Shown here one piece after another: positions 308 to 63,978 of a DNA stretch of 64,000 nt. Positions within the stretch are counted from its first letter, which is position 1; each line of letters starts with the position of its first letter. The notes under the pieces are model-generated. The model saw nothing but the letters and a program-made list of their open reading frames with translations. It ran no database searches and had not been told where the DNA came from. The DNA is taken from positions 1,842 to 65,841 of the forward strand of contig RWJK01001635.1 in the NCBI GenBank assembly GCA_004335835.1, read 5' to 3'. Position numbers and translations under genes: made by a program. The DNA comes from Scenedesmus sp. ARA3 (taxonomy: Eukaryota; Chlorophyta; Chlorophyceae; Sphaeropleales; Scenedesmaceae).

Positions 308-402
308 AATGCTCCTGACTCTGCTCTTTGTGGCCCTGCTGTTTGCTGCGTCACCTTGTGGCGCTCTTTGCTGCAGCTGGTGATGGGTGGGCACTACTAC
401 AG
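308..402 (+). repeat. 5' echo of the BI-1 exon at 478
   Basis: This stretch copies about 420-505 roughly 101 bp upstream. It contains the intron end, a CAG acceptor (374-376) and the first ~25 nt of the exon starting VMGG-YY-SI, and then diverges. No donor follows it, so it looks like a partial boundary duplication rather than a real exon. I recognise nothing in bases 1-307. Confidence 0.7.
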
Positions 403-477
403 CATCTTTTCTGCCTGTGGTGCTGACTCTGCTCTTCGTGGCCCTGCCATTTGCTGTGTTACTTTGTGCTGCTGCAG

Positions 478-778
478 CTGGTGATGGGTGGGCGCTACTA
501 CAGCATCAGCCCAGACGAGTACATATTTGCGGCACTCAACATTTACCTGGTGAGCCGGGCAGCAGTGATGCAGCACAACAGGGTGTTGCTTTCATGGCAC
601 AATCACCACATGCAGATGAGCAGGCACACTGCTGATTGGACGGTTGCAGCAACTGCAACATGTGAAGTGCATGGCCAGGTGTGCATGATGCTGCTTGTTG
701 ATGTGTTGTTGATGTGGTATGCACGGAGCCTGGCAGCAACCCGTGCTGGTGCTGGCTGCTGTATCCACAAGGGGCTGC

Positions 779-819
<41 letters not shown>

Positions 820-887
820 AGGACATCATCAACCTGTTCCTGTGGATCCTGACTCTCATCGGACTGGCTGGAGGCAGCAACAACTAA
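478..887 (+). CDS. BAX inhibitor-1 / Lifeguard (TMBIM) family protein, last two exons (partial)
   Basis: Two exons are visible: 478-549 and 822-887, with stop TAA at 885-887. The intron is 550-821, with donor GTGAGC and an acceptor at the end of a (CTG)13 run. They join in phase 0 to give the C-terminal signature of the TMBIM/BI-1 family: SISPDEYIFAALNIYL, then DIINLFLWILTLIG, then a short polar tail. In this family the segment holds the last transmembrane helices of a seven-helix ER or Golgi protein that regulates calcium leak and cell death. The N-terminal exons lie before the window or in the unresolved first 300 bases. The family call rests on the conserved SPDEY..AALN.YLD.IN.FL pattern. 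Which TMBIM subfamily it belongs to cannot be decided from the tail. Confidence 0.82.
780..821 (+). repeat. (CTG)13 tract forming a splice acceptor
   Basis: Thirteen CTG units run directly into the CAG acceptor of the last BI-1 exon. The triplet repeat takes the place of a normal polypyrimidine tract. Confidence 0.85.
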
Positions 888-4432: not shown

Positions 4433-4467
<35 letters not shown>

Positions 4468-6014: not shown

Positions 6015-6051
<37 letters not shown>

Positions 6052-16991: not shown

Positions 16992-17026
<35 letters not shown>

Positions 17027-17076: not shown

Positions 17077-17115
<39 letters not shown>

Positions 17116-17165: not shown

Positions 17166-17285
17166 ATATGAAGTTGAAGACAGCAGCCATGGTGGCAGGG
17201 GGCGCCTCCTAGATGCGTGAGTGAGCAAGATGTTGCATCCAGCTATTGCAAACTGTGTTTACATGCCAATGCAAGCTTTTTACTA
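17166..17285 (+). repeat. Dispersed repeat, copy B
   Basis: Near-identical to 2178-2297 and begins directly at the assembly gap. Confidence 0.8.
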
Positions 17286-26300: not shown

Positions 26301-26345
<45 letters not shown>

Positions 26346-33928: not shown

Positions 33929-36381
33929 TGCTATAGGCAAGTGACCAGCAGGCAGCGTTGGGTCGCTGCAGCTGTCAGCTGCAGTGTGGTTGGTCTGCCA
34001 GGGGCCTGCAAACCACACCATGCAGTCACCAGACATGCAGGGGTAAGCCATCTAGCAGTTGACAAGCCCCTACTTGCGCTGCACATCTCGGATCATCCTG
34101 GGCGCGCGTGAACACAGCTGAAGTCCTACCGCTGTTTGACGTCGCACATACGTCCTGCCGCTGTTTGCTACCATATATAACACTACCGAGCATCGCCTTT
34201 CTGCTGTGGCCGTTGGTAGGTGCGGTCACCTGCTGTGCTGAACTTGACGTGCCCAAACAGCTGCAGCTCCGCCCATACAGCCACAGCAGCCCAGCTGCCT
34301 TTCTGCTGCATCTCCGCATCCAGCTGGGCCACCGCACTGGTGTCATTTAAATCTACAACAAACCTTGGCTGTCGCTGCATTGAGTGAGTACCAGCTACAT
34401 CACACGAAGCAGGCATAGCAAGCAAGCATGAGCAGAAACTCAGCCATCTCCCACTCAGCTGAATCATTGGTAGGCGGGCTCACCTGCCGTGCTAAAAGTG
34501 ATGTCCCCAAACAGCTGCAGCTCCGCCCATACAGCCACAGCAGCCCAGCTGCCGTTCTGCTGCATCTCCGCATCCAGCTGCGCCACGGCACTCGTGTCAG
34601 CAGCCACTGCCAGTGACGGCATGTGCCACACATGCACTGGAGCTGACAGGGGGATGAAAGTAGAAGGGTCCAGAGGGCTAGGCAAGCACTGGCTGGGTGT
34701 CCACCTGCCAGCAGCAGCAGCAGCAGCAGCATGATTGGGTTATGTCATCTGGTCATCAGCCTGGCTCACAAGCAGCAACGGTGACTGTAAGCTGCGTGTG
34801 CTAGGAGTGAATGCGCTGGATGGGAACCAGATGAAAAGCCCTATATTGACAGAGTTGTAAACAGCACCGCAGCTCACCTGTGCTTGTCGAGTGCAGAGAG
34901 GTCCAGCCAGCTGCTGCTGCCACCATCTTCACATCCGTCTTCACAGCCAGCCGCCAGCCTGCCACTGTGAACTTCACACCCGGACGGCCGCACCCCCACT
35001 GCCTGCGCCATCACTGTCACTGCTGCAGGAACAATCACAGGCTCCTCCCTGACTAGCAGCTCATCCAATGCATGAGCAACTGCTTGTATAAAACAAAGTA
35101 GCTCAGCTCACCTGTGCTTGTCGAGTGCAGAGAGGTCCAGCCAGCTGCTGCTGCTGCTGCCGCCATCTTCACACCCATCTTCACAGTCAGCCGCCAGCCT
35201 CCCCCCGTGAACTTCACACCCGGACGGCTGCACCCCCACTGCCTGCGCCATCACTGTCACTGCTGCGGGAACAATCACTGGCTCCTCCCTGACTAGCAGC
35301 TCATCTAATGCATGTGCAACAGCTGGTATAAACCCTCCAGACAGAACCCCATCATCGATGATGTCAGCAACCAGGCAGTTGCAGACGCAGGGGAGGTCAC
35401 TGCCGATCTTTAGGGTTGTTGGGTGGCTGCTGGTGACACTGAAAGAGGTTGCTGGTACACCGTTGGACAGCAGAACTTGGCGGCAGGCTGCAGCGAGGTA
35501 AGGGCACCTGTTGCCCAAAGGTGGCATACAGAGGAGCAAGGCAGCAGCCAGGATCTGCGGTCAGCAGGCGCTTGGGCAACGCTGTGGGTGTGGTATGCTG
35601 GGGTGTTGACAGAGGTATTGCAGTCAAATGCATGCAGACATGCTGGTAGTGCGGACCAATGAGTTGGTTTCAACGCGTCATTTTCGTCACGTTTCAATGT
35701 GTCACACAGGGCTGCCATGACATTGCAATCATTGATGCACAGCCCACTGCCGGTCTCACCACAAAATTCAGAAGCATTGCATGTTGTAGCAGCACATCCC
35801 ATCACAGCCTCATTACTCACTGCTCCACGCAGGTGACGTGCACTGCCCCAGCACGCACAGCAGCAACACACGTATGATACGCCATGCATGCTTTCATGTG
35901 ATAGCACCTGCTTTACAGCCACATTACTCACTGCTCCACGCAGGTGACGTGCACTGCCCCAGCACGCACAGCAGCAACACACGTATGATACGCCATGCAT
36001 GCTTTCATGTGATAGCACCTGCTTTACAGCCACATTACTCACTGCTCCACGCAGGTGACATGTACTGCCCCAGCACGCACAGCAGCAAGCGCCAGTAGCC
36101 CTGCTTTAGCTCCCAGCAGCAGCACGCGAGGCTGCCGTCCACTGGCAGCCACTGCTGCCACTGCTGATGCTGTTGCTGACCACAAAGCAGAGAGGCGGGC
36201 AGTGTCGGGCAGCTGGCGGTGCAGGTAGCGCTTTGGAGCTGCTATGTCGCACTGCAGTTGACAGCAGCAGCAGCAGCAGCAGCAGCAGCACGGCCTTTTT
36301 GGCAACGGCAGTGAGGCAAGGGGTGTCGGGCAGCTGGCAGTGCAGGTAGCGCTTCGCCGCGGCAATGTCACACTGCAGTTG

Positions 36382-36426
<45 letters not shown>

Positions 36427-36528
36427 GCGGCAGCACGGTGTGTTTATGGGAACAGATGCAAGGCGAGAGGTGTCGGGCAGCTGGCGGTGCAGGTAGTGCT
36501 TCGGCGGCGCGATGTCGCACTGCAGTTG

Positions 36529-36587
<59 letters not shown>

Positions 36588-36637
36588 NNNNNNNNNNNNN
36601 NNNNNNNNNNNNNNNNNNNNNNNNNNNNNNNNNNNNN

Positions 36638-36688
<51 letters not shown>

Positions 36689-39600
36689 TGCAGCAGCAGC
36701 GCTGTGCAGTTCCGCACAGCAGCAGGCCGCCATGCATGTGCTGCTGATGTGTGACACGCAGATGCTAAATGTGAAAGCAGCACCGCCTGGTGACGCATGC
36801 ACTCAACGACCAGCAGTGCGTGAAGCAGTACCAATACCAGCACATCATGATGACAAGAAAAGGACCTGCACATACACAAAGGCAGGCACATTTGAGGTTA
36901 TTATTATTTATTACTGAAGTACTGAGTACCGGTATCCCACTAAGTCACATAGCAAGTGCGTGTGTTAGCTTCTGCAGCAGCAACCCACCTGTGTGATGAC
37001 ATACTCATACACATCTGAGGCTTGATGCAGTGCACCGACACAAAGACAGTGAGCGGTTTCAAGTGCATGCAGCAGCCACTGCATCACAAAACCCACCTGT
37101 GTGCGGACATACTCATACACATCCCTCAGGGCAGGATCAGCAGCAGCAGCTGAAGGAGTCAGCAGCACCCTAGGCAGCTGCCAGCTGTCCACCCCAATGC
37201 CAGTTCCACATCCCGCAGCACCAAACCCTTGTTGCTGCTGTTGCAGCTCATCATCATCATCATCTGCTGCCCCCAAGTGCCCGCAGTGACAGCAGCTGAG
37301 GGTGCACCAGTCATTGGCAGCAGCTGCAGCAACCCACCTGTGTGCGGATATACTCATACACATCCCTCAGGGCAGGGTCAGCAGCAGCAGCTGAAGGAGT
37401 CAGCAGCACCCTCGGCAGCTGCCAACTGTCCACCCCGCTGCCTGTTCCACATCCCGTAGCACCAAACCCTTGCTGCTGCTGTTGCAGCTCATCATCATCA
37501 TCATCATCATCATCTGCTGATCCCAGCTGCCCAGCAGCAGCAGCACACAGCAGCGCAGCCGCCGGCTGCTGCCAGCCCACAGCATACTGCTGCCCCGGGG
37601 CCAGCAGCTGCTGCTGCGCAGCGCTTGCTGCTGCTGCAGCAGCAGCACGATTACGCTGCAGGGACGAGCCAGATGCGTTGTGTGGCGCTAGGGTTAAGCA
37701 CTCTGGGGTTTGGGGAGCCGGCAGGGCTTTGCAGCTGAGGGTTTTGCCGTGTAACAGGTCTTGGAGTAAACCCTGCTGTGCTTGCTGCAGGCCTGACTTG
37801 AGAGTGGGGCTGAAAGGGTCTGCCTCTAGGCCTGCCTCAAATGCAGCAGCAGCCTGCACGAGCATCAGACAGCACAAGAGCGCAATCGTGACGGACAGCT
37901 TTTACAAAGTGGTAGCTGCAGCCACTTGCAAGCCGCTTCTCTTAGAGTGCTGCACCTCACATGCAAGCAGCAGTTAACCCACTGCCTCTCATGACCGTTT
38001 GGTGGTAAGGGTGCACATATAGAAGTCACACCACCCACCTGCCTGTGCTGCCCCAGCCCCAACAAAGCATCCCCCAGCCGCAGGCATGCTTTGGGTCAGG
38101 GCGGTGGTGGCGGCTGGTATGACATCACCAGTATGCTTGCACATGACTTGACAAGAATGCTGTGCAGTTGCGCCCACCTGCCTGTGCTGCCCCAGCCCTA
38201 ACAAACCGCTCCCCAGCTGCAGGCATGCCTTGGGCCAATGAGGGTGGCCGCTGAGGGACAGCAGCCACCACCCAGTTTGCTGCTTTGGTCTTTTCGCAAG
38301 CGCTACCAGTAACCCAACCCACCCACCTGCCTGGGCTGCCCCAGCTTTAACAGAGCATCTCCTACCCGCAGGCATGCTTTGGGCCAGTGCGGGTGGCGGC
38401 TGTTATGACATCACCAACATGCTTCCACATGACATTACAAGATTGCTGTGCAGTTGCGCCCACCTGCCTGTGCTGCCCCAGCCCCAATAAAGCATCTCCC
38501 AGCCGCCGTCAGGCCTTGGGCCAGTGCGGGTGGCGGCTGGGGGACAGCAGCCCAGCCCAAGCTGCGGCTTCCTATTGTACACACTTGACTGCAGAACACC
38601 ACAGAATGCTTTCGACGCGCTTCTCGATCGAACGTGCTGAGGATACTTCCATGCGTTCATGCTATATGCAAACTCTGTGTGAACACCTCACATGCAGCCA
38701 CCAGCCGGATTGCTCAGCGCAATGCGAGTCGGACCCTGCTAGCATGCACTCACAAAGCACGCGCAGCCAAACGTAGAAGTTACGCATCATTTCCCACCTG
38801 CCTGTGCTGCCCCAGCCCTATTAGAGCATCTCCCAGCCGCTGGCAGGCCTTGGGCCAGTGCGGGTGGCGGCTGGGGGACAGCAGCCCAGCCCGTGCTGCC
38901 TCTGCCCGCAGCAGCTCCAGGCACTGCTGCGCATCCTGCAGAGACATGTAAAAGCAATAACACAGGTTTATGAGGATGCATTGGCTAGCATCCAACAGCA
39001 CATAACATGTAGTACAGTGAGGGCTGATGCTGCACGCAGCAGCTCCAGGCACTGCTGAGCATCCTGCAGGCAACATATGTACAGTGGAATGTGGGCTAGG
39101 GGAGTACAGAGCATGCAGAGCAGGGTGGCGGCTGGGGGACAGCAAGCCAGCCCTGCCCGCTGCTGCCCGCAGCAGCTGCAGGCACTGCTGCGCATCCTGC
39201 AGGAACATGGACAGACAGTCAGGGCAAGAGACGAGCAGCACATGCAGCGGACCATATGCAAGCATGGCTGCTTGCAACAGCTCCAGGCACTGCTGCGCAT
39301 CCTGCAGGAACAACCAACGTGGGTCAGAAATGTGCGTCTCAAGCAGAGGAGCGTGCCCAAGTGGCTGTTAGTCATTGTCTAGCAGCTGTCCAGCAGCATC
39401 ACCTGCAAAAACCACTTGTGTAGGCCCGTTTGCAGCAAACCAAAGACGGGCAAATCCGTCAGGCTTGCTGGTCAGCTGTTCAGTAGACATCCATCACAAG
39501 CACCAGCACCAGCACTTCTGGGCACCCATGTCAGCAGCTATAGCCGCACCTGCAGTGCCTCTCTGTGCTGGCCCAGTGCCAAGTGGCAGGCTGCCTTGTT

Positions 39601-40335
39601 GGAGTGCGCTATGGAAGAGCTACAGTAAAGTCACAGAACGATTGTAGTCGCTACAACTGCAAGGTTTACAGCAGCAGCCAGAGAGATCCACCTGCAGCGC
39701 CGCTCTGTGCTGGCCCAGTGCTAGGTGGCAGGCTGCCTTGTTGGAGTGAATGCCCACATCCGCACGCTTGCGGCCAATTACCACAAACAGCTACAGCTGC
39801 CCCTTGATGTTTATTTCATCATCACAAGCACTAGTATAGTTCAGCAGCTGCTGCTGCTTCAGCAGCTATAGCCGCACCTGCAACGCCTCGCTGTGCTGGC
39901 CCAGTGCCAAGTGGCATGCTGCCCTGCTGAAGTGAGTGCCAAGGTGTGCAAGCTTGATGCCAGTTACCACAAACAGCTACAGCTGCCCCTTTACTTTGTA
40001 AGTTTTCATCACAGGCACCAGTATGCTTCAGCAGCAGCAGCAGCTAGATCCGCACCTGCAATGCTTCTCTGCACTGGCCCAGTGCCAGGTGGCAGGCTGC
40101 CTTGTTGGAGTGCGCTTTGAATAGCTCAGGGTGCGTTGTGTGCTGCGCTGCAGCTGTCTCAAACAGCTGGCTCAGCAGGGTGATGGCTTGCTGGTGATCG
40201 CCTGCCGTGACGGCAGCAACCGCGGCCTGCAATTTGCAGCGGCAGGATGATACACAAAAAAGCGGTGTAGGTGTGCTGCGGGTGGTCAGCTGTGTGGTGT
40301 GCAAGGTTATGTTGGGTATTCGACAAGCAGTTTAT

Positions 40336-42844: not shown

Positions 42845-44151
42845 GCATGATAATGCTTGTTACATCGGGTTGGATTCAACAGTGTTATGTGTCATTTTCT
42901 CATCTCAGTTTCGAAAAGCTTGAAATGTTGGAGCCTTGCGCAACTTCATCCTAGGCGATGTGTTTGTTGCAAGATTGCAGCCATTGAAATTGCAATGCTA
43001 CATGGTAAACACCCTAATGTCTCGCTGTTTCCAAAATCTGGCTGACGGTAATGCAGGCGGGGCTCCTCGCCATTGTCGTGGTACCATGTGGATGCGTTAC
43101 AGAAGCAGCAGAGAACCCTGATGCAGCTGACACAGCACACATGTGTGGCCCGCGCTTTTTGAAATTGCTCTGAGAAACTCAAGCTGCGAACTGGCAGCTA
43201 CTTGCAACATGCATGCATACCACACAACCATGAACATTCAATTGCAATCAAGCCATAGCAACATCATGATGTTGCTGGTGATCACCAGCGGGCCCCGCGG
43301 AAGACTGTGGGATGCATGCCATCTGATGGCAGTTGCAGATCGTATGCAACTCATCTGCAGGGCGTAGGCCATGCTTCAAGGGTGTTCTAGCAGCAGCAGC
43401 ATGCTAACTCCCGCTGCTGTCATAAGTGCTACAGGACTGCTACAGCATGCTAGCACTGGTGCCGATCAACAGCCACAGTGGTCAACCAAATACCCAATCA
43501 AACAGGGTCATGGTGGGCATCTGTTGGTTCAAAACCCGGGCAGTGCTGCTTGCTACTGCATTAGCTGTCAGCTGCACATGCAGCATCTCGTGCTGCGGCA
43601 GCAGCAGGCTCAGCAACTACACTAGACACTAGACTTAACCATTGAACATGCTCAAAACGCATAGTATCACACACGCGCCAAAAAACAATGGCAAACACCA
43701 GCGCGGCAGCCCAAGCCTGCTGCAGCATCTGTGGCGCCGACATAAAAATTGCGTGCGCTGTGGATCAAGGCAGCTTACAACCTGGCACTGCATGTGCCGA
43801 GCCTCTGCCTGTAAAGTCACCTGCCTGTGAAGTATTGGCACTGTCAACAGCCACTGAAGCCGTCTCACTACTTCACCCAACCATGCGCATGCACCTTGTC
43901 TGCACACCTGCCGTGCCACATCCCAAAGCATTGACACCTACACACTGTTGAATACGATCATGACTCGACAAGAACATTCCTCTGTTACTCATTCCAAAAC
44001 CCTGGAGGTCTTCAAACTCCAGGAAGCCTGGCCTCGCCGACCGCCTGCTAAAGGAGCAATGCCCACATACAAACAGCCTACTCCAGGAACGTTGACCTTT
44101 TGGTCATGCCCTTTCAACCAGTCAGTAGCCAAAGTCCAAAGCTGGTCGCCT

Positions 44152-44301
44152 ATTTGGGAAAGCTGATGGCGTGCAAAATGTATCGCTTCTTAGGGTTCCA
44201 CAGAACCTGACCTTTTGGTCATGCTCTTAGAACAAGGTTCAAAGAAGAAGCTGATCGCCTACTTGGGGAAGCTGATGGCTTGCAGGATGTAGGGCTTGAC
44301 A
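44152..44301 (-). repeat. Two 3' echoes of the last cyclotransferase-like exon
   Basis: The last exon end and stop (YILQAISFPK, then TAG) plus about 60 bp of 3' flank are repeated downstream, at about 44262-44301 and 44152-44186. A GACCTTT(T/C)(G/T)GTC(A/C)TG flank recurs with each. Confidence 0.8.
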
Positions 44302-44372
44302 CGGCTTCACAGGCGCCGACCTTTCTGTCCTGCTCTGAAAACCTTAATCAAGCGCATCTTGAAACCACAACC

Positions 44373-45705
44373 CTACTTGGGGAAGCTGATGGCTTGCAGG
44401 ATGTAGGGCTTGACATTGTTCAGCAGCGCGTCATCAATGCTGGCGGCATCTGGCACTGCAATGAAGGGCCTGCAGCGGCAGGGCAGGCACACACACACAC
44501 ACACACACACACAGTGCAGGATCAGGTTGCTGCTAGAAATGAGGTGCATTGCGGCATCTGGCACTGCGGTGAAGGGCCTGCAGCAGCAGGGCAGTTACAC
44601 ATGCACACATAGCGTAGAGTCAGGTGCTGCTAGATCACAGAAAAGGCGAGGTGCATTGCGGCGTCGGATCGCGCTCAACCGTTCAGCAGCTTGCCAAGTG
44701 CCACGCTAGCAGCGCTCCTATCTGGTGTTTATACTGGGGTTCCCTCTCCTCGTTTGCGTGGAGCATGTAATGTGATGTGATGTAATGTTATACAGTGTTG
44801 GCAGGCATATAGTTGGTGGCACTGAGGCAGGTACCGCCTGCCGACACTGTGTATAACATGCAGCACACCAGTGCACTCACCTGAAGGGGTAGACCCTGTC
44901 GTTAATCCAGAACTCGCTCCAGTCGTATGTGTTGGAGGCGGTGTCATTGACAAAAGAGTAGTGCCCAGTCAGCTTGCGGTACTCCTCGCCCTCCAGCTTG
45001 AACTTGCGCTGCAGCTGCAGCGCGCCAGCCAGCCTGTAGCACGAGCAAAGTGGCGAAGGCAGCACACATGATTAGCAAGCGAGGTGGGATGAGGCAGTAC
45101 AGTGTGGAGATGGCACACAGCAGGGCTTCCTGTTTCGGCAAGCAAAGGTGGGATGAGTGCAGTGTGCAGGTGGCACGCAGCAGTACAGCTGTGTTGTTTG
45201 TTGAGCAAGATGGTCAGTTTGCGGTACTCCTCGCCCTCCAGCTTGAACTTGCGCTGCAGCTGCAGCGCGCCAGCCAGCCTGTAGCACGAGCAAAGTGGCA
45301 AAGGCAGCACACATGATTCAGCAAGCGAGGTGGGATGAGGCAGTACGTCTGGTAGTAATCAAGCAACCCAAGCATAGCTTGGACCGGCAGTACTGTATGG
45401 AGATAGCACACAGCAGGGCTTCCTGTTTCGGCAAGCAAAGGTGGGACGAGTGCAGTGTGCAGGTGGCACGCAGCAGTGCAGCTGGGATTGGTTGGTGAGC
45501 AAGTGGGTCAGCTTGCGGTGTTTTTCGCCCTCCAGCTTGAACTTGCGCTGCAGCTGCAGCGCGCCGGCAAGCCTGCAACACAACGTCCGCAGCAGCGCTG
45601 CTTGGGTGGCAGTTGTGCGTCCAACGCAAGTTGCTGTCCTACTTGCAGTAAAGCGCAGCTTGCAAGGCAACCAGCCTGCGCTGAGCACGAGCTTCTCTGG
45701 CAGCC

Positions 45706-45757
<52 letters not shown>

Positions 45758-48543
45758 CCTGCAAGCCGCCACTCACCAGATGTCAACGTAGCTCTGCACG
45801 ATGGGGAACTCCGACGTGGCAGTTGTCAGGAGCTATTGCTGCTGCTGCTGCTGCCACCGCCGCTGCTGCTTTGCTGTACCACTCACCAGATGTCAACATA
45901 GCTCTGCACGATGGGGAACTCCGGCGTTGCAATTGCGAGGGTGCTGGGGTTGGAGGCAAAGAAGATTATCTGTGCATTGCTTGGCGCAGGCTTGCCGTCC
46001 AGGAAGGATATCTTGGAGGTATCCAGATTCTTCACGTCATATCCAGCCATCTGCTCCCGCTTCACCTGCCGGCACAAACACGACAGAGCTCTGCATGAGG
46101 TCAGGCGCACTTTGTCTTAACCGCTTCCAGGCATGATGTTATGAGCACCTGCTGCCTCAGTCACAAGGAGAACTGCTGTGCAAGCAGGCGCAAGTGCATC
46201 TGCTTATGCAGCTGCGGCGAGCTGCCTGCGAGCTTTGCCATGCACGCTGTAACGCCCCTCTATCCGCCCAACAGCAATCCCTGCCTTGGACTGGCAATAG
46301 CATATGACCACTATCTACTGCAAACATGCACACTTAGCGCACTGGCGGCATGATCCACCAAGAATCAACACGCAGTGCTCCCACCCGCTTGTTGCACTGC
46401 TCCTCTGTCCTCCTGTGACCACTTTCTGCTGCAAAAATGGATATCTAGTGAACTAGCGGCATGCCCTACCAAGTAAAAGAAAGTCAAACACGCAGTGCTC
46501 CCACCTGCTTGTTGTACTGCTCCTCTGTCACTTTGTAGACAACGCCGGTGGCAATGAACTCGTTTCCTGCAACTGTAGCGCCGAGGAATGTTGGCTTGCG
46601 CGAGAACGCAGAGGTGCTGAAAGAGCCGCCCTGCAAAAAAGCAACAGCAGCACTAGGCACTTGATTACTACAGCTAGTTAGCTGTGGAAGGTTAGCACCG
46701 GCTGCTATGCATACGTCATGAACTTGCCAGCACAAAAATGGCGGCATAGCCGGGCGGTGCTGAAGGAGCCGCCCTGCGAACCAACAGCAACAGCAGCAGT
46801 GTTGCTGCGGCATAGCTCCTGCAGCCCTGGTCGGGTGAACAAGAGCACAGCCATGCTTTCCTGCAAGCCACGCATGCAGCTGTGCTGTCTTGCAAAGGCA
46901 GAGGGCTCCCACCTGCAGTGCCTTGGCCTGCACACCAAGAACATCTGGCAACCTATGCTGTCCTGCAAGCTGTGTTTTGGTGCTAGCAAAGGCTGCTGCC
47001 CATTTGCAGTGCCCTGGCCCTGGCCTGCGCACCAAGATGTGTGGCCAGCGGTGCTGTCTTGCAAGCTGTGCATGCAGCTGCTGTCCTGCATAGTACCCTA
47101 ACAATAGCAGCTGCTGCCCCTCGAAGACAGTGGGCTCCCACTTGCAGTGCCTTGGCCCGCACACCAACATGTGTGGCCAGCTGTGCTGTCCTGCAAGCTG
47201 CGCATGCAGCTGCTGTCCTGCAAAGCTTCTATGCTAGCAGCAGCTGCCCACCTGCAGTGCCCTGGCCCTGGCCTGCGCACCAACATGTGTGGCCAGCGGT
47301 GCTGTCTTGCAAGCTGTGCATGCAGCTGCTGTCCTGCATAGTACCCTAACAATAGCAGCTGCTGCCCCTCGAAGACAGTGGGCTCCCACTTGCAGTGCCT
47401 TGGCCCTCATGCCAACATGTGTGGTCAGCTGTGCTGTCCTGCAAGCTGCTCATGCAGCTGCTGTCCTGCAAAACTTTTATGCTAGCAGCAGCTGCCCACC
47501 TGCAGTGCCTGGGCCCTCACACCAACACATGTGTGGCCAGCTATGCTGTACTGCAAGCTGTACATGCAGCTGCTGTCCTGCAAAGGCAATGAGATCCCAC
47601 CTGCAGTGCCTTGGCCCTTACGCCAGGTGCATTCCAAGCGCGCCTGATGCCGGTGACTCTCACTGGCCTGATGTCTGCGTTGTCACATGCCGCCACGCGC
47701 TTTGCCATTGCGTTTGCATCTTCACCGTTGAATTTAAGGAAGCTGTTGCCAATGATGGTTTGAACTTCGAACTCGGGCAGAGTGATGTCGCAGTTGGTCT
47801 GCAGTACAGGTGGGGAAGGGGAACATGACTCAAGTGAAAACAAGTTGGCCAGTCTCCAAGTTAGCACAGGCAGGATCTTGAACAGCAAAAGCAGCAGCAC
47901 TTGTTGTAGCACTGTGCGGCTGGGGTGCTGGTTGATGTTGAGGCAGTGCAGGTGAGCCTGGCATGCGCACTGTGCAGCAGCAGTGCAGGGCGTCACTAGC
48001 AGTGTAGGACACTTGTGCTGCAGAACAGAGGCAGCTGGATCAGCACTACTGCCACTGCACTTCAAACAAAACCAATTACAAATGCGGTGTAAGCTTGTCG
48101 CTAGGCAGGAATGCTGTATGGTGCAGCACTACCGTCAGGTGTGACTCGACTGGGAACTATTTGATAATCTGGTGGCTGACGAAAGAAAACAAGTATCTCC
48201 GCCACCTCATGAATCACGCAATTGTGCATTCATGAANNNNNNNNNNNNNNNNNNNNNNNNNNNNNNNNNNNNNNNNNNNNNNNNNNTAACACTCTCGCTA
48301 GCAAGCATGGCTGTTCTGCACCAACTGTTCGCTGCTACCACATTGACAGCAATACACCAGTGCATTTCACGCCATGGCATAGATGCTCACCCGGATGCGT
48401 GAGCCTTCGTGCAACAAGCTGCCATAACCGAAGATGTAAAAGGCCTTGTTGCCGGGCGCAGCTTCAGCTTTGGGCTCAGGCCGAGATGCCTCGGCACACG
48501 CCAGCACCGCAAGGGCACCCAGGAAGATACGCAGGAGGCTCAT
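44373..48543 (-). CDS. Secreted gamma-glutamylcyclotransferase-like protein (GGCT/AIG2 fold)
   Basis: Six exons on the minus strand: 48543-48391, 47798-47622, 46630-46505, 46065-45887, 45033-44881 and 44469-44373 (stop TAG). All phases agree and give 294 residues. Residues 1-20 are a signal peptide (MSLLRIFLGALAVLACAEAS). FGYGSLLHEGSR at about 38 is the glycine-rich loop that starts the cyclotransferase fold. IRPVRVTGIRRAWN and EFIATGVVYKVTEEQ follow. REQMAGY at about 155 places a Glu where the family has its catalytic acid. YDWSEFWINDRVYPFRP occurs near the end. Known members remove gamma-glutamyl groups as 5-oxoproline in glutathione or gamma-glutamyl-peptide breakdown. The signal peptide implies entry to the secretory route, which is unusual for cytosolic GGCT. 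The exact substrate cannot be inferred. Intron 1 contains the 48237 gap and intron 2 a long repeat array. Confidence 0.82.
44487..44514 (+). repeat. CA microsatellite
   Basis: About 13 CA units lie in the last intron of the cyclotransferase-like gene. Confidence 0.85.
44530..44582 (-). repeat. 5' echo of the last cyclotransferase-like exon
   Basis: Acceptor plus RPF.AVPDAA is copied about 110 bp upstream of the true exon at 44469. Confidence 0.85.
45215..45590 (-). repeat. Two 5' echoes of cyclotransferase-like exon 5
   Basis: Copies of LAGALQLQRKFKLEGE..RKLT begin near 45573 and 45276, ahead of the true exon at 45033. The 45276 copy is nearly identical for about 75 bp and shares upstream intron sequence. 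The acceptor is kept. Confidence 0.9.
45771..45832 (-). repeat. 3' echo of cyclotransferase-like exon 4
   Basis: Repeats EFPIVQSYVDIW and the GTGAGT donor, about 110 bp after the true exon end at 45887. Confidence 0.88.
46368..46425 (-). repeat. 3' echo of cyclotransferase-like exon 3
   Basis: Repeats the end of exon 3 (TEEQ.NK and donor). A matching 5' echo of the same exon start lies near 46745-46785. Confidence 0.8.
46870..47615 (-). repeat. Repeat array in intron 2 of the cyclotransferase-like gene
   Basis: Five or six units each carry the intron-2 start (minus-strand GGGCCAAGGCACTGCA(A/G)G) followed by AGCTTGCAGGACAGC. Two 119-bp blocks, 47037-47155 and 47285-47403, are practically identical at a 248-bp step. 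The array looks like repeated 3' echoes of exon 2 that have lost most of the exon part. Confidence 0.85.
48237..48286. other. Assembly gap (50 N)
   Basis: Placeholder gap in intron 1 of the cyclotransferase-like gene. Unlike the other two it is not next to a CAG run. Confidence 0.95.
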
Positions 48544-52396: not shown

Positions 52397-52459
52397 CGCC
52401 GGTTGTTGCAGCGACAGATGCAGCGGCTGCAATCACAAACAAAACACCAGCCTCGTTCC

Positions 52460-56019: not shown

Positions 56020-56055
<36 letters not shown>

Positions 56056-56296
56056 CTCCTACCCCTGGCTTTGGCAGCAGCTGGATGTTGCTTGCCTTCA
56101 AAGCTTTCTGGGTTTGAGGCTCATCAGTGGGGCTGTTCCCAACAACTGTCAGCAGCGGAAACTCTGGGTGCTTCAACCAGCAGTCCAGCAACTCCCTGCT
56201 GTGCTTGAGGCCAGACTTGCCTCTGACATGCAAGAACTGACTGTAGTCTGCAGCCACCTTGGCAGGGCGGTGCTGCTCTTGTTGCTCCTTCTGCTG

Positions 56297-56334
<38 letters not shown>

Positions 56335-57093
56335 ACATAGTGACAACTGGCCATTTACGTCTTGCACAGCTCACTCATGCAGTCCGCCTACTGGTGGCGC
56401 AGCCACAAGCTGGTAGCCTACTGCAAGTACCAGCCTGACACAACGCCAAAGGTTAACATATTCGCCCACCTGCATGACATGTATACATGTTCACATGCTA
56501 CGCAGCGACTCATTGTAAGGGCTCAACCACTCGTGGTGCAGTGATGAACGCATGCAGCGCTGCTAGCAGTTGCAGGCTTGGTCTCCAAGCTCCCTGAGGA
56601 GCAGCAGCAGTTGCTGTGCGGAGTTGCTGCTGCCGCAGCAACGTTGCAGATCACTTGCTCACAACAACACAGCATAACTAATTATTTGAAACACTTGAAA
56701 AACAGCAAAACAAAACAAAACACAAGATTCCGCACCATATTTGCTACACACTCTTGATTGCAAACCCCTTGTAAACAGCTCACCTGCATGACATGGACTG
56801 ACTCATTCTGAGGGCTCAACCACTCATGATACATTGTCTCCAAAAACATGCGGGCGGTACGGTTGGCGCAGCGCGCATTGTACTGCGTCATCTCTTCTGC
56901 TTGCAGCAGCGGGATTATGCGCGCGCTGGCGTGGATGACGTACAATGCCACATCCGTGCAGGACCCTACGCCGCGCTCGCTGCCGCGCAAAGCTATGTCA
57001 AGTGGGGGGCATGGTGCATCATCCGGCAGGCTGGGTAGCACCTGCAGCTGCTGCTGGTGAGGCCTGAGCTGCAGCACGGTGTTTTGCCTGGTT

Positions 57094-57124
<31 letters not shown>

Positions 57125-57702: not shown

Positions 57703-58470
57703 TGCATACAGCAATACAATTATCTTTTACGTTTCGGATGGTGTGCCACACTGGAACGCCCACTATATTGTCCAAAGACACAGCAAGAAGGTGTGTCAAT
57801 ACATGATGTTGATGGCCGATGGTTGGTGGTGATTGGTGCACAAGTGGTGTGTTCAAAGCAATAAGATGCAGAATAACTTGCGCATCTGGCAGCAGCAGGT
57901 CCCACACGTGTTCCTGGAGCGTTCAGCGTCGCGGGCTGTTTGACGTCCAAGGATAACCTGTCACTTATGAACTACCTACAGCTGTGCATCACGAACACGT
58001 GTCACCTTCGGCGTTTGCGTTGTTTTTGTTCTTGCTTTTTATTACTTTCTGCACAGCGTTCTCCCGTCGTAGTGACATACCTTACACCGGACGCAGACAC
58101 CGCAGCCTCATTGCCACCTTAAACTTCCATTTCCATTGCTGGTGTTTGCGCTTTCCGATCGGCTGGGATAGCACGCTGTAGCGCTCAACAAACAGCAGGA
58201 CACCTAGGTCACCAGCAACAGCAGCAGCACAGCCCGTCATCTTTGATCGGCGCAGCGTGAGATGGCATACACACGACGCCAGCTGTAGCGCGGAATTTCT
58301 TCGGACAGGCGCTATGTCGGCCCACAGGTGCAGTACCTGCCAGCAGCAGAAACTGCCAGTGCTGGTTCCGCCCGGAGAAGTGCTACTGCTTGCCTAGCTC
58401 AGTTGGACCAGGCAGTAGCATGCAGCTGGCTTGAAATTTAGCATGCTAAATGTGTAACTGGTGTTGTTCA
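57703..58470. promoter_or_regulatory. Divergent region between the two glycosyltransferase genes
   Basis: These 768 bp lie between the two head-to-head start codons and must hold both promoters. Nothing coding is seen. The sequence is less triplet-rich than elsewhere. No core elements were recognised with confidence. Confidence 0.45.
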
Positions 58471-61400
58471 ATGTGGCGCAGCTCTTCACACGGCGGTCGC
58501 CACAGCAGTCACGGCAAGCAACACACAAACCGCTTGTTCCTGTGGATACTGCTGCTGAGCGGCGCAGCAGCAGTAGCGGTGCTGTCAGCTAACAGGTGGG
58601 CCCAGAACACCTTTGAATAATCAACAATGACAGCTATCAGACAACAAGTAAAACCCAGTGAAAGCAGCTGTCATGGGTGCGAAGCAAGTGCTTGCCGAGT
58701 CCCTGCTGCAGTCCAGCTCTAGCAGGCCAAGTGACACAGTGAGGTGTTGTACAATTTGCAGCACAGATTTTCCACTATGCTGTATTGCAATGTAACATGT
58801 TGCTTTGCATAGCTTAGTGCACTACACTGCAGCCGGCATGCTTGGTGCAGTAGCAGGATCTCTGGAGTCGTGTGTGTCCTGCCTGCTGACCATGCTTGCA
58901 GCCCCTTGGCACCGTCCAAACAGACGGCACATGGCTGCACCAGTTGCTGCCGCCCTCTGTCTGCAGTTTGTTTTGCAAGCACACCTTTAACAGACACATA
59001 CTGCTCTATGTTTCACTGTATGTCACACATCCTGCAGGTACCTGCTGTCAGCGCATGTGCTTGACAGCCCCATCCTACCACACGCAGATGCAGGACCCTT
59101 AAACCTCCGATTACATGCGGCAGACGAGCGGCTGTTGCGGCAAAATTAACGCACCGTTGATGCTGTCCAGTCATATGGCTGCACCACTTGCTGCTGCTGT
59201 CTTCCCTCAGGCTGTTGTCTGCATCCTACATCTTCTCCAGCAGTGATGAATTACTATTGTACACGCTGCTACACACCCTGCAGGTACCTGCTGTCAGTGC
59301 ACGTGCTTGACAGCCCCATCCTGCCTCATGAAGATGCAGAACCCTTAAACATCCGCATACACAGGCTGTTCTCTGTATCCCAATGACCTTGAACAGCTGT
59401 AATGCAATACTGCGCATGCTGCTACACATCCTGCAGGTACCTGCTGTCAGCGCATGTGCTGGACAGCCCAATTTTGCCTCATGAAGATGCAGAACCCTTG
59501 AACATCCGCATACACGTGGCCGATGAGCGGCTGCTGCGGCTGGTGGTTGAAGAGTGTGCAAAGCGGGAGGAGAGCATTATTTGGCTAGACAAGGAAGGGC
59601 AGATGGTGGTGCAGGAGGCGCTTGATTTCAAGTGAGCAGCAGCAGCAGGTGTAGCAGCAGCATGCAGCCGGTAGTCACAGCGGCAGATGTGTGTTGTGGT
59701 TGAGGAGTATGCAAAGCGGGAGGACAGCATCATCTGGCTGGACAAGGAAGGGCAGATGGTGGTGCAGGAGGCGCTTGATTTCAAGTGAGCAGCAGCAGCA
59801 GGTGTAGCAGCAGCATGCAGCCGACAGTCACAGCAGCAGGGCGGTTTACGACATCGCACGGTTGATTGGGATGCGATTGAGACAGCGCAATGCTTGCAGC
59901 AGTGACGGCAGTGCAGCATTATCTAGCTGGACAAAGAGGGGCAGATAGTGCAGGAGGCACTTGACTTCAAGTGAGCACAGTAGCAGGTGTGGCAGCAGCG
60001 GCGGCAGCAGCATGCAGCCGGCAGCCGCAGCAGCAGGGCATATGTGTGATGGCTGGGCAATACGCCTAAAACGTGTCCGCTGGCTATTTGTGCTCGTCTG
60101 TGTTGCAGGCAGTGCCCAACAATAGACGTCCTGCTACCTGGAAGGGACCTGCTGCATACATGTTTATTGCTGCGGCTCCTTCAGCTTCATGACGTTGCTG
60201 CTGCCCCATTGATACACATCTTTGCACTGCAGGCAGTGCCCCACAATGGATGTGCTGCTACCTGGAAGGGACCGTGACCTAACAACATGCACAGACGTTG
60301 TACTCTATGTCACGCATACAGGAGCACGCATCATGCTTCTCCTGCAAGCTGTCGACCAGCCCAAACTTGCCTTTTGAAGCCCAATCTTGCCTTTTGTTTG
60401 ATGCTTGCGCGCCTTTCGACACGTCTCTGCTGGCTGTTTGTGCTCTTCTCTGTTGCAGGCAGTGCCCCACAATGGATGTGCTGCTACCTGGAAGGGACCG
60501 TGACCTAACAACTTGCACAGACATCGCACTCTACGTCATGCACACAGGCGCCCGAATCATGCCGCTCCTGCAAGCAGTCGACATGGAGCGATACAACACT
60601 GGCTGCGGCGCCGCAACTGCGCGCATGTTTTGGCACACTATGTACCCCCAGTTCATCGCCAACCGCCCAGATGTGCTGCATGTAATGCTGGTGGACCACA
60701 ATCAGCTACTGGTGGATGATGCTCGTCTGCACCGGCACATGAATGTGTTCCTGTGCAAAACAAGGGTGTGCTTGGAGCTCATGCAGCGACACGTCATTAA
60801 AATGGGATACAGAGGGCACGTGTGGCTGATGGGGCATACAAGCTCGGATCCAAGCGTGGATGTGCGGCAAGGCACTCAGGGCAAGGTGAGGCTGTTTACA
60901 GATATTCAGTTGAGCGCTGCAGCTGTGCCTATGGGTGTTTCTGAGGTGATCTTCGGCTGAGCATGCTTGGTGTGCGGTGCGTGAAACGTTTACCACTGTC
61001 CCAGCCTCACGACCCACATTTCTGCTCCTTGTGCACCACACACCAACCTCGCGTAACACCTAGCATTTGTGTGTCACTTGGTGCATAACGCCAGACGAGC
61101 ACCTGTATGTCTGCCGGATGTGCGTGGCCGCTTGCAGGACTTGTCATTCCTGCACATAAAAGGCAGGTCGCCTCTGCGGCATACGCAGCAGCTGCTGCGC
61201 TGCTGGGCCTCTCAGCCAGAGTTTCCCCGGCTCACTGTTGTCGGGGCATTCACATGGGATGAAGTGAAGGGATATGGGGACGCGATCAACATACGCTTCT
61301 TGCCGCAGGTTTGTTATAACATGTTGTAACACATTCCGAATGGTGTCGAACGAGACTGACAGCTGCTGCAGCGCGAGTGTTGTGATGACACAACTACTTA

Positions 61401-63820
61401 AAAAGGGGCAAATTTTAAGACCATTTAGCTGTAGTTTCACTCATAGCATAAGGACTCCAGCGTCTGCTATGCTACCATCAAGCCAGCATGCACCATATGC
61501 AGCACAACCCCCTGCACAGCCTTACACCAGCTACCAACCATGTGGCACCTTCTGTTCCTGCACAGGTCAACCAGGACACTCTTCCAGACCAACCGCCGCG
61601 GCTGTTAGTGCCTACAGAGCTTCGGCAGCTGCAGGCTGACTCACCGGTGCATATATGCCCCAGCCAAAGTGAGGGCTGGGGTCACACAATCAATGAGGCG
61701 CGTGCTGTTGGGGCTGTGGTGCTGACCACAGACCACCCACCAATGAACGAGTTCGTCAGCAAGTGAGTGGTTTAGTATCATGTGAAGCACTGGGTGTCTC
61801 CCACAGCATTGACTGCTGTGCCGAACTTTGCCCTGCTATGCTGTGGCTGTCAGGCAGCCTAAGCATAATAGGCGTGCAACGGTTCTCACCCGGTGCACAT
61901 ATGCCCCAGCCAAAATGAAGGCTGGGGTCACACAATCAATGAGGTGCGTGCTGTTGGCGCTGTGGTGCTGACAGCAGACCACCCGCCGATGAACGAGTTT
62001 GTCAGCAAGTGAGTGATGTGTCTTATGTGAAGCGCTGGGTTCCTGCCTGAGCATGCTGTCGGCACTGTGGTGCTGACGACAGACCACCCGCCGATGAACG
62101 AGTTTGTCAGCAAGTGAGTGGTTGGGTTTCATCTGAAGCACGGGGTGTGCGCTGTGCTGTTGCGGGGTGGCTGGGCTTGCGATCGGTCTGCTGCTGCGTG
62201 CTGTTCTGAGCTGAGCCTGGCTGCTCTCTGCTGCGCAGGGCGCGTTGGCCAGGCCTGATCACCCCTGCTGCGCTGCGCTGTTTCGAGCTTTACACCGCTG
62301 CAATTCGCTCTGACTCTGCTGGCATTAGTAATCAGCACACACTGAACTGTACCTAATTGCTGTTCTCCGCTGTGATTTCTGATCGTCTTCTGCTGTGCAG
62401 GGCAAAGGGCCCTGGCCTGGTCAACCTTGCAGAGCGGCTGCTGGCGTACAGGCACCTTGCTCTCACACAGTATGCCCTCCTGTGCTGTGCTGTTGCAATC
62501 TGCACTCTACTGCCGTCTGCCAGCCGTGTCTCTATGTGCACAGGGCGCAAGTCCCTGGCCTCGTCAGCTCTCCTGTGCTGCACTGCGATTAAAGCTGCAT
62601 GCTGCTGCTGTCTGCTGCATGTTTCATGCACAGGGCAAAAGGCCCTGGCCTGGTCATTCCTGTTGATCGGCTGCTTGCGTACAGGAAGCCGGCTCTGGCA
62701 AAGTATGCCCGGCTGTAAAGATGGACAGTCTACATGAATAATGCAAAGCTGCGCACCTTCAAGCAGGCCGGCTGTGCTGTGCTGTTCTGAGCTGCACTCT
62801 GCTGCCCTCTGCCGGCCGTGTCTCTATGTGCAGGGCGCAAGGCACTGGCTTCATCAGCGCCCCTGTGCTGCGCTGCGCCTTTTTAAGCTGCATGCTATTG
62901 CTGTCTGCTGCATGTTGTATCCACAGGGCGAAGGGCCCTGGCCTGGTCATCCCTGTTGAGCGGCTGCTGGCATACAGAGAGCTGGCTCTTGCCAAGTATG
63001 AACCATTGGATGCGCTGATTGACGAAGCGCAGCTGTGTGACGTGGTGGAATCAGTACTGCAGATGCCCGCACAGGTGAGGGGCCTAGTTGCTCATCAGCA
63101 TTGTAAGCTATTTGTTCTCTGGTTCTATGGTTATATGATCAGTGAATGTTTGAATCCACGGTTTGGTGTTTGCTGGATGTGCTGGTAGATGACGTGCAGC
63201 TGTGTATGTGGTGGAGGGATTCAGTGCTGCAGATGCGCACCAAAAGCCCGGTACAGAAAGCACAAGCATGCACGCTAAAGATGTTGTTGCTATGGCTTGA
63301 TGAACGGCTGCTGCTGCTGCTGCTGCTGCTGCTGCCGCGCCTTGTAGGAGGTGTACGAGCGGGGGCAGCAGGCACGCACCAACTTCTTGTATGAGAAGGC
63401 CGTGTTCATGGCGCGGATGCAGGTGAGGGGCTGCTGCTGCTGCTGTGTTACTTTTGTGTTACTTCCCATTCGAATTGGCTGCCAGGTCAGCGGGCACTGC
63501 TGCATGCAGTCTGGGCTACTACCATAGGCGTGCATGGCACCCTTGCCATCCGCAATGCGTAATGCTGCTGTGTCAGAATAAAGCTTTAGAGAAAAGAGCC
63601 AATATTTGCAGAACCTCTGGGCCTTCCTTGAACAGCTTAACACATCAACTGTTTTGGATCGTGCTGCTGCTGCTGCTGCTTGCAGGACCTGCGGGCTTTT
63701 CTGGAGCAGCGTGCGCAGGGCTTGCAGGGCTTTGAGCAGCGCTCGGGGCTGGGTGACGATGGAGGGCTGATGCAGCAGCGGCAGCTTTTAGAGGAGCAGC
63801 CCTCACTGCCGGCAGTGTAA
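58471..63820 (+). CDS. GT-B type (family 1-like) glycosyltransferase, type II membrane protein
   Basis: Eight exons: 58471-58595, 59437-59631, 60459-60885, 61138-61308, 61566-61762, 62927-63074, 63348-63422 and 63686-63820 (stop TAA). All borders are GT-AG, all phases agree, and the product is 490 residues. A basic N-terminus followed by LFLWILLLSGAAAVAVLSA predicts a type II signal anchor, hence a Golgi or ER lumenal enzyme. Exon 3 has CTDIALYVMHTGARIMPLLQ, LCKTRVCLELMQ and GHTSSDPS. Exon 4 has FLHIKGRSPLRHTQQLLRCW. Exon 5 has HICPSQSEGWGHTINEARA and TTDHPPMNEF, the nucleotide-sugar half of the fold. Here W replaces the usual F of EGFGH. The last exons are helical. Donor and acceptor sugars are unknown. 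Cell-wall or glycoprotein synthesis is possible. Every intron except 3 and 4 carries echoes of the flanking exons. Confidence 0.83.
59035..59365 (+). repeat. Two 5' echoes of glycosyltransferase (+) exon 2
   Basis: Acceptor plus YLLSAHVLDSPILPH.DA.PLN(L/I)R begins at 59039 and 59284; the true exon is at 59437. The first copy extends to ADERLLR and then hits a stop. Confidence 0.9.
59640..59975 (+). repeat. Two 3' echoes of glycosyltransferase (+) exon 2
   Basis: Copies of the exon end (KRE(D)SIIWLDKEGQMVVQEA, LDFK, donor GTGAGC) end at about 59785 and 59969. The first is near-identical for about 100 bp including the AGCAGCAGGTGTAGCAGCAG start of the intron. Confidence 0.9.
60109..60375 (+). 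repeat. Two 5' echoes of glycosyltransferase (+) exon 3
   Basis: Acceptor plus QCPT(M/I)DVLLPGRD begins at about 60110 and 60234, ahead of the true exon at 60459. The second runs for about 125 bp (to ARIMLLLQAVD) before diverging. Confidence 0.9.
61885..62118 (+). repeat. Two 3' echoes of glycosyltransferase (+) exon 5
   Basis: Bases 61885-62012 repeat PVHICPSQ.EGWGHTINE through NEFVSK. Bases 62049-62117 repeat only VLTTDHPPMNEFVSK. Both keep the GTGAGTG donor. Confidence 0.9.
62238..62875 (+). repeat. Five 5' echoes of glycosyltransferase (+) exon 6
   Basis: Starts of the exon (GPGLV.P.ERLLAYR in the best copies) occur near 62238, 62400, 62541, 62634 and 62839; the true exon is at 62927. 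All have a G(C)AG acceptor. The copies near 62400 and 62634 extend about 75 bp into the exon. Confidence 0.88.
63165..63245 (+). repeat. 3' echo of glycosyltransferase (+) exon 6
   Basis: Repeats LD.L.D..QLC and SVLQM. A base loss shifts the frame, and the donor GT is lost. Confidence 0.8.
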
Positions 63821-63884
63821 TCCAGCAGCTGAACTCAGGAACTTCCTTGCGGCGAGCCCACACCGCTGACTCAGCGTCGGACAG

Positions 63885-63889
63885 TGTAA
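63885..63889 (+). other. Candidate poly(A) signal TGTAA for the + strand glycosyltransferase
   Basis: TGTAA lies 65 nt after the stop codon. A second TGTAA overlaps the stop itself. Both are chance-prone short motifs. Confidence 0.3.
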
Positions 63890-63914
63890 GTCAGAAGCGT
63901 AGTTTCCTGTGCTG

Positions 63915-63978
63915 TGATGCAGCAGCGGCACGAGGGGCAGTCCCTGGAGGGGGAGGCCTCACTGCCGGCAGTGTGAAA
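63915..63978 (+). repeat. 3' echo of the last glycosyltransferase (+) exon
   Basis: Repeats MQQR(Q/H)..(L)E.E.SLPAV and a stop (TGA) about 155 bp downstream of the true stop. Confidence 0.85.

What the first reader, a model, noticed from the sequence alone, without database searches (positions are those of the whole stretch)
308..63978. Genome-wide 'echo exons': partial tandem duplications anchored on exon-intron borders
In BI-1, the large Ala/Ser/Gln gene, SPPA, the PRMT, RRM, cyclotransferase-like, coiled-coil and glycosyltransferase genes, introns or flanks hold diverged partial copies of the adjoining exon edge. 5' echoes carry intron end + AG + exon start. 3' echoes carry exon end + GT + intron start. 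Steps are mostly 100-250 bp, with one to five copies per border and usually an intact splice dinucleotide. I count more than 55 copies. Ordinary exon duplication copies whole exons. Here the duplicated unit straddles one border and stops inside the exon. I know of no described system in which nearly every intron is built this way. It would inflate introns and supply competing splice sites throughout the genome.
Basis: partly seen in the sequence, partly recalled or inferred. Interest (0 to 1): 0.93.

Follow-up and report, generated by a model that had tools for sequence, protein, structure and literature searches.

The report
Exon-edge tandem duplications filling algal introns
In this green alga (close to Tetradesmus obliquus) many introns have grown by repeated short tandem copies of the neighbouring exon edge; the copies decay like junk DNA, but they sit at exon edges and rarely elsewhere in introns, which ordinary random duplication does not explain.

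Summary
The window is from a Tetradesmus obliquus-like alga (87 Mb genome). I modelled 83 introns in 3 window genes and in chaperonin genes fetched for their conservation, not for echoes. In 40 of 83, a tandem family contains a donor or acceptor border. Exon probes of 40 bp or more found start copies only upstream and end copies only downstream, all direct. Steps are 90-160 bp in 49 of 57 border families, although the search detects 40-90 bp units. Of 63 families, 57 hold a border and 3 are true intron-only; uniform placement predicts about 41% intron-only, and planted intron-only copies are detected in 98-99% at matching divergence. Copies decay neutrally. 'Nearly every intron' and 'genome-wide' are overstated: CCT-zeta has 0 of 12 introns with families, and kinesin exon spacing implies 7 of 65 introns above 400 bp. 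No sign of a mobile element. Best reading: exon-seeded short tandem duplication, probably from DNA-break repair, filtered by splicing; the cause of the exon bias is unproven. Literature check limited: most paper searches failed.

The parts
58314..63820 (+). Glycosyltransferase-like gene (P0001 orthologue), 9 exons: 58314-58327, 58482-58595, 59437-59631, 60459-60885, 61138-61308, 61566-61762, 62927-63074, 63348-63422, 63686-63817(+stop)
   Evidence: splice-aware alignment of OEZ86_009707
59025..59361 (+). 5' echoes of exon 3 (intron end+AG+exon start), copies at 59025-59141 and 59208-59361
59717..59973 (+). 3' echoes of exon 3 (exon end+GT), copies 59717-59787 and 59906-59973
60071..60356 (+). 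5' echoes of exon 4, copies 60071-60149 and 60192-60356
61885..62148 (+). 3' echoes of exon 6, copies 61885-62054 and 62051-62148
62398..62707 (+). 5' echoes of exon 7, copies 62398-62483 and 62523-62707
44379..48543 (-). Gamma-glutamylcyclotransferase gene (A0A383W620 orthologue), 6 exons: 48391-48543, 47601-47798, 46505-46630, 45887-46065, 44881-45033, 44379-44469
45212..45581 (-). two 5' echoes of exon 5 (45212-45277 and 45506-45571 at protein level)
45769..45830 (-). 3' echo of exon 4
46305..46409 (-). 3' echo of exon 3
44138..44415 (-). coding end + stop codon + 3' flank, three copies counting the real one: an echo at a border that is not a known splice site
   Evidence: TRF, 2.5 copies; sequence, read by eye
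34458..40259 (-). TPR/PRMT-like gene (OEZ86_009712 orthologue, main exons mostly 84-91% identical, model partly uncertain): exons 40056-40259, 38798-38935, 37798-37853, 37097-37124, 36043-36251, 35112-35507, 34458-34704
35791..35977 (-). two 3' echoes of the exon at 36043-36251 (111 bp step, 96% identical): exon end 46 bp + 17 bp intron start + 48 bp spacer
36308..36524 (-). 5' echoes of the exon at 36043-36251
37317..37470 (-). copy (91%) that takes in the whole of the small, uncertain 28 bp exon 37097-37124 with its flanks: an exception to the partial-copy rule
34863..35092 (-). 3' echo of the exon at 35112-35507 (240 bp step, 94%)
38020..38572 (-). array of 3' echoes of the exon at 38798-38935
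39532..39934 (-). array of 3' echoes of the exon at 40056-40259
28712..29574 (-). 5.7 copies of a 152 bp unit carrying a PRMT-like exon segment
310..507 (+). BI-1-like gene (Bax1-I match below the curated cut-off), 108 bp step duplication over the start of the predicted exon 478-549

Best explanation
Each echo family starts as a short local tandem duplication in DNA. One breakpoint lies inside a coding exon (15-124 bp from its edge) and the other lies in the intron, leaving 45 bp or more (any spacer included) between the used border and the copy, so the repeated piece spans the border; the step is typically 97-160 bp. In some cases a spacer without homology separates the copies, as expected of end-joining repair with filler. 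The exon-adjacent splice site stays in use, the outer copy becomes intron sequence and decays neutrally, and repeated rounds lengthen the intron. SHOWN: direct local copies, border inside the unit, steps mostly 90-160 bp, rarity of intron-only units, a neutral pattern of decay, longer introns where copies occur. INFERRED: that breaks are seeded in exons, that repair fill-in or end-joining makes the copies, that the exon-adjacent site is the one spliced, and that purifying selection removes duplications lying wholly in exons or too close to the used site (for acceptors, keeping branch point and pyrimidine tract). Whether the copied sites are ever spliced is not known.
For: 57 of 63 families in 83 introns hold a border. 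Of the other 6, one is an exon-internal piece of a masked border duplication, two are 15 and 23 bp minisatellites and three are intron-only (my reading of the listed coordinates). Uniform placement predicts 41% intron-only; planted intron-only copies at matching divergence are found 204 of 206 and 196 of 200 times, and 178 of 197 at higher divergence; the intron part alone of real units is detectable in 26 of 51. All 57 nearest units have 45 bp or more of intron part. The step floor persists with a Smith-Waterman search that finds planted 40-90 bp units 100 of 110 times. Codon-position differences 45/43/92 of about 583 each in 34 of the 51 units: first and second positions equal, third doubled, as for a neutral copy against a constrained exon. 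Two tested spacers have no second locus. An array at a stop codon suggests that splicing is not required. Mean intron 685 bp with and 283 bp without families; published mean intron length is 462 bp in T. obliquus against 230-302 in four relatives (PMC5966456, passages).
Against: No repair intermediate, lesion map or strain comparison was available. Counting all 6 non-border families against the reading, P is 3e-8 at 41% but only 2e-3 if just 25% intron-only were expected. The sharp lower limit of about 15 bp exon is unexplained by simple seeding; so is the intron limit on the donor side. Breakpoints show no CAG/CTG excess (21 of 49, expected 23.5), and by eye no clear microhomology. Strong gene-to-gene differences (CCT-zeta 0 of 12, delta 6 of 9) have no explanation. 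The stop-codon case is one example, without RNA evidence. Kinesin genes are nearly free. The models of zeta, delta and both cpn60 genes rest on my own predictions plus profile matches, with repeated pieces left out by hand.
Confidence: 0.5

Rival explanations
1. Ordinary random tandem duplication: units about as long as the ancestral intron must usually cross a border, exon-only ones are purged, and exon parts stay recognisable longer.
For: With echo-free intron lengths and observed steps about 59% of random placements cross a border; no exon-only duplication was found, as selection predicts; neutral decay.
Against: Three true intron-only families beside 57 border families: P about 2e-10 at the 41% expectation and 5e-5 at 25%; with all 6 non-border families counted, 3e-8 and 2e-3. 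Detection of intron-only units is 98-99% at matching divergence. None of 51 units has under 41 bp intron part, P about 2e-10 for uniform breakpoints.
Confidence: 0.22
2. RNA-linked copying of splice-site modules: spliceosome-protected pre-mRNA pieces are reverse-transcribed and joined next to their source.
For: Units behave like complete modules, at least 15 bp exon and 45 bp intron on both border types, with sharp limits; spacers in some young acceptor cases look like full intron ends with branch-point-like motifs (by eye).
Against: Copies are local and direct; the 9 inverted matches are 8 middle pieces and one within its own exon. A stop-codon border shows similar geometry without a known splice site. 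Exonic breakpoints vary freely.
Confidence: 0.13
3. Selected function: extra splice-site modules act as decoys or boosters of splicing and are kept for that.
For: AG/GT are intact in most copies; a preserved-module rule would explain the sharp size limits.
Against: Copies show a neutral pattern and the dinucleotides are kept only about as well as neighbouring copied exon bases; step modulo 3 is even, 18/18/15; co-functioning CCT subunits differ from 0 of 12 to 6 of 9 introns.
Confidence: 0.08
4. Mobile element or introner family inserted at borders.
For: Characteristic unit length.
Against: Units are copies of their own exon edge; of 78 matches between different loci the 60 listed lie mostly at the kinase or chaperonin domains that were searched for (not checked one by one); two tested units or spacers have no second locus in 87 Mb.
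Confidence: 0.03
5. Assembly artefact.
For: Short contigs and N gaps exist (151 N in the window).
Against: Exon parts of nearest copies differ from the exon by 0-20% in a neutral pattern; families occur in 7 of the 8 modelled chaperonin loci; published T. obliquus introns are long.
Confidence: 0.02

Closest known systems
Internal gene duplication (Gao & Lynch 2009; seen here only as cited in PMC4974935, otherwise recalled)
   Same: Short duplications inside genes that can include exon-intron borders.
   Different: Here units of a narrow length range recur at single borders of unrelated genes, with intron-only units rare.
[quoted passage not shown] potato RdRp case, PMC4974935, passages)
   Same: The tandem copy carries branch site, polypyrimidine tract, 3' splice site and exon sequence; the potato gene also has an 83 bp tandem duplication in an intron.
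   Different: Here no new intron arises in the models; existing introns lengthen, and the copy is left as dead exon edge. The potato intron duplication is of the intron-only kind that is rare here.
   Same: Short local direct duplications, sometimes with filler, from staggered breaks.
   Different: Those are not described, as far as I recall, as tied to exon edges.
Introner elements (recalled; named in PMC4974935)
   Same: Small repeated units linked with introns, known from algae (recalled).
   Different: Introners are dispersed families that make new introns; echoes are single-locus copies of the neighbouring exon.

Membership tests
Local tandem duplication | Direct, adjacent copies of a local segment | tested here: met
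   77 start/end matches in the adjacent intron and 13 beyond model ends, all direct; against these 2 direct and 8 inverted middle matches, 1 inverted in its own exon, 2 in other exons (11 of 13 models, exons under 40 bp not probed)
Local tandem duplication | Homology runs through the whole unit without filler | tested here: inconclusive
   Intron part alone detectable in 26 of 51 units; one young case has a 48 bp spacer
Random tandem duplication | Breakpoints placed without regard to exon borders | tested here: not met
   57 border families, 6 others of which 3 true intron-only; all 57 nearest units keep at least 45 bp intron
Intron gain by tandem duplication (Rogers model) | The copy creates a new intron from an exonic AGGT segment | tested here: not met
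   In the three models backed by outside proteins, and in CCT beta and eta checked against PDB proteins, exons are unchanged and copies lie inside existing introns
Introner or other mobile element | Dispersed family of similar units | tested here: not met
   (two units searched genome-wide)
Patch-mediated break repair product | Staggered nicks and fill-in at the locus | not testable with these tools
   needs new mutations in a strain or lines
Used alternative splice sites | Transcripts spliced at echo sites | not testable with these tools
   no RNA data held

The most novel reading that the evidence does not exclude
A border-specific duplication process works in Tetradesmus: breaks seeded in exons (or copying of splice-site modules) repeatedly make about 100-160 bp tandem copies that straddle exon edges, with fixed minimum reach into exon and intron, and this process, not random DNA gain, accounts for the long introns of this lineage compared with its relatives.
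Probability: 0.42. Interest if true: 0.86.

Novelty: new variant of a known kind. Interest (0 to 1): 0.72.

Why it matters
It would identify a concrete mutational route by which introns lengthen, measurable copy by copy, in an alga whose published introns are longer than those of its relatives. The rarity of intron-only units makes exon- or splice-linked duplication directly testable. It also warns that gene predictors may add false exons here: my own finder did so in several chaperonin genes.

Tried and rejected
1. CAG/CTG repeats as breakpoint seeds: no excess (21 of 49 against 23.5 expected). 2. A template for spacers: of 6 spacers compared with their own locus, none beat its shuffles except two with simple CTG runs and one matching its unit's own copy; two searched genome-wide have no second locus. 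3. BLAST-based length floor: BLAST hides tandem steps under 90 bp, so I repeated the search with a Smith-Waterman script; the floor stayed. 4. Selection on copied splice sites: dinucleotide retention no better than the copied exon. 5. GC or repeat content as cause of regional differences: weak, p 0.08 and 0.06. 6. First gene-finder trainings drifted and were discarded (draft unused). 7. In 20 kinase loci, 41 of 48 families overlap a predicted exon or coding island; with strong islands only, 29 of 48 hold an edge against 12.4 by rotation, maximum 24. These loci lack protein-backed models, so I did not use them for the main count. 8. Papers PMC8780407 and PMC3488318, passages only, held nothing on this.

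Rows dropped and choices made: of 10 fetched chaperonin loci, L031 and L036 were not modelled and L029, L030 only in part; a further PF00118 gene on C1192 was not fetched. Beta, eta, zeta, delta and both cpn60 genes were modelled with reference proteins that I derived from my own predictions at the same locus, leaving out repeated pieces by hand; beta and eta were then checked along their length against PDB proteins, the other four only by profile matches. One suspect 24 bp exon of CCT-eta was treated as an echo by hand; spurious exons under 15 bp and exon-exon matches were removed before counting. P0131 exons 3-4 are uncertain. The splice-aware alignment only allows GT/GC..AG introns. The probe test left out eps1, alp1 and exons under 40 bp; the 28 bp exon so left out does have a whole copy.
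Full report
WHAT IT IS FROM. The genome G000 has 87 Mb in 1567 contigs. Predicted proteins match T. obliquus: OEZ86_009707 (P0001), A0A383W620 (P0010, 99% in the aligned part) and OEZ86_009712 (P0131). The window is therefore from T. obliquus or a close relative in the Scenedesmaceae.

THE OBSERVATION. A masked self-comparison of the window gives 106 direct matches under 3 kb apart and 17 further apart. Aligning the three database proteins back shows full exons and, in the adjacent introns, second and third partial copies that start at the exon start or end at the exon end. A splice-aware alignment, which allows only GT/GC..AG introns, fixes the exon edges; all 19 introns came out GT..AG. Most tandem families in those genes touch a border.

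A SECOND SAMPLE. I fetched chaperonin genes because they are conserved, not because they have echoes (PF00118 search; loci L029-L038). PDB matches identify CCT alpha, beta, epsilon and eta; zeta, delta and the two cpn60 names are my reading of the sequences. Splice-aware models plus the three window genes give 83 introns. For six of these genes the reference protein came from my own prediction at the locus with repeated pieces left out; beta and eta were checked along their length against PDB proteins. Some copies are so intact that my gene finder had taken them as exons, for example a repeated segment in CCT beta.

COUNTS. BLAST: 58 families, of which 55 border, 2 intron-only, 1 exon-internal; 39 of 83 introns. 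Because BLAST hides steps below 90 bp (0 of 129 planted 40-50 bp units found, 53 of 126 at 80-90 bp), I repeated the work with a Smith-Waterman self-alignment that finds planted 40-90 bp units 100 of 110 times; the highest score in 16 shuffled regions was 15, against thresholds of 22 (planted test) and 20 (count). Result: 63 families, 57 border, 6 not (one exon-internal piece of a masked border duplication, two minisatellites, three intron-only); 40 of 83 introns; 25 families touch a donor and 32 an acceptor. Smallest steps of the 57 border families: 4 below 90 bp, 49 from 90 to 160 bp, 4 above.

POLARITY. Exons of 40 bp or more used as probes in 11 of the 13 models give 38 start copies just upstream, 39 end copies just downstream, 10 end copies beyond the last modelled exon, 3 start copies before the first, 2 direct middle copies, 8 inverted middle pieces, 1 inverted match in its own exon, 2 matches in other exons, and no whole-exon copy. 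One exception outside that test: the uncertain 28 bp exon of the P0131 gene has a copy that includes all of it. The polarity follows from tandem duplication across a border with the exon-adjacent site kept in use.

IS IT ONLY GEOMETRY? If units of the observed length are dropped at random on introns as long as the echo-free ones, 41% fall wholly in the intron. Three true cases beside 57 border ones is far fewer (P about 2e-10); with all six non-border families P is 3e-8, and if only 25% were expected the two values are 5e-5 and 2e-3. Decay does not hide intron-only units: planted ones with 7.5-8.5% change per copy are detected in 400 of 406 trials, and with 12% change and more indels in 178 of 197. 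Real intron parts alone are detectable in 26 of 51 units; allowing for that, P is still about 7e-6 (on the BLAST counts). In all 57 nearest units at least 45 bp of intron lies between the used border and the copy. For acceptors this fits the need to keep a branch point; for donors I have no firm reason.

AGE AND DECAY. Between copy and exon, differences at codon positions 1, 2 and 3 are 45, 43 and 92 of about 583 each in 34 of 51 units (P0131 and the partial models left out). That is what a freely drifting copy and a constrained exon give, with about 7-8% neutral change on each side. The AG and GT of the copies are intact about as often as neighbouring copied exon bases, so no selection on them is needed. 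Exon parts of nearest copies are 80-100% identical, which suggests a continuing process.

HOW COPIES ARE MADE. Many units are plain tandem duplications. In others a spacer without detectable homology separates the copies: in the window gene at 36.0-36.3 kb the pieces are exon 46 bp + intron 17 bp + 48 bp spacer, repeated twice, then exon and intron without the spacer (by eye). Two spacers searched genome-wide match only their own locus. Exonic breakpoints have no CAG/CTG excess. One array holds three copies, the real one included, of the coding end, stop codon and 3' flank of the cyclotransferase gene with similar spacing, so a splice site may not be required. I therefore favour breaks seeded in exons, repaired by fill-in or end-joining, with splicing as the filter. 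Seeding and repair are inference.

HOW WIDESPREAD. Families are very uneven: CCT-zeta 0 of 12 introns, cpn60b 1 of 10, cpn60a 2 of 7, eta 3 of 10, delta 6 of 9, beta 6 of 8, epsilon 3 of 4 and alpha 4 of 4 of the introns modelled. In 20 kinase loci I found 48 families, 41 of them over a predicted exon or coding island, while 7 loci had none. Kinesin exon spacing, inferred from profile matches without reading the sequence, implies 7 of 65 introns above 400 bp. So the effect is common but patchy. It goes with intron size: mean 472 bp over 83 introns, 283 without and 685 with families. A published comparison gives mean intron lengths of 462 bp in T. obliquus against 230, 302, 284 and 270 bp in R. 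subcapitata, M. neglectum, C. zofingiensis and C. reinhardtii (PMC5966456, passages).

NOVELTY. Single duplications that carry a splice site and exon edge are known (potato case, PMC4974935, passages), and internal gene duplication is described there as common (citing Gao & Lynch 2009, which I could not open). I found no description of a border-bound, size-limited class, but only two paper searches were answered (listings); the rest failed, so absence from print is not established.

Noticed in passing
window 18326-20641 and 25495-28589: Long-range matches (mostly 67-79%) show a local gene duplication about 7.5 kb apart.
   Followed up: no
window 19055-19171 and 26534-26641 (minus): A segment of about 38 residues (AGVRISYAQLLAAADSMVAGVEVWVQAQQQLGV and neighbours) recurs, 76-100% identical in the proteins I compared, in T. 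obliquus, Scenedesmus and metagenome proteins: a widespread domain or dispersed coding repeat.
   Followed up: partly
window 2183-2296 and 17170-17283: A 114 bp stretch 97% identical at two places 15 kb apart; the second lies next to an N gap, so it may be an assembly-edge effect.
   Followed up: no
window 56069-57041 (minus) and 58314-63820 (plus): Two related glycosyltransferase-like genes side by side on opposite strands.
   Followed up: no
window 44138-44415: Tandem array over a stop codon: copies of the protein end, stop and 3' flank, with no known splice site involved.
   Followed up: partly
L034 (CCT-zeta) compared with L029, L030, L032, L038: CCT subunit genes differ greatly in echo content (0 of 12 up to 4 of 4 modelled introns); the echo-free zeta gene has the GC-richest introns of the models.
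   Followed up: partly
L014:5494-6155: Array of about seven copies, 90-110 bp apart, each with an open coding-like segment, in a kinase locus.
   Followed up: no
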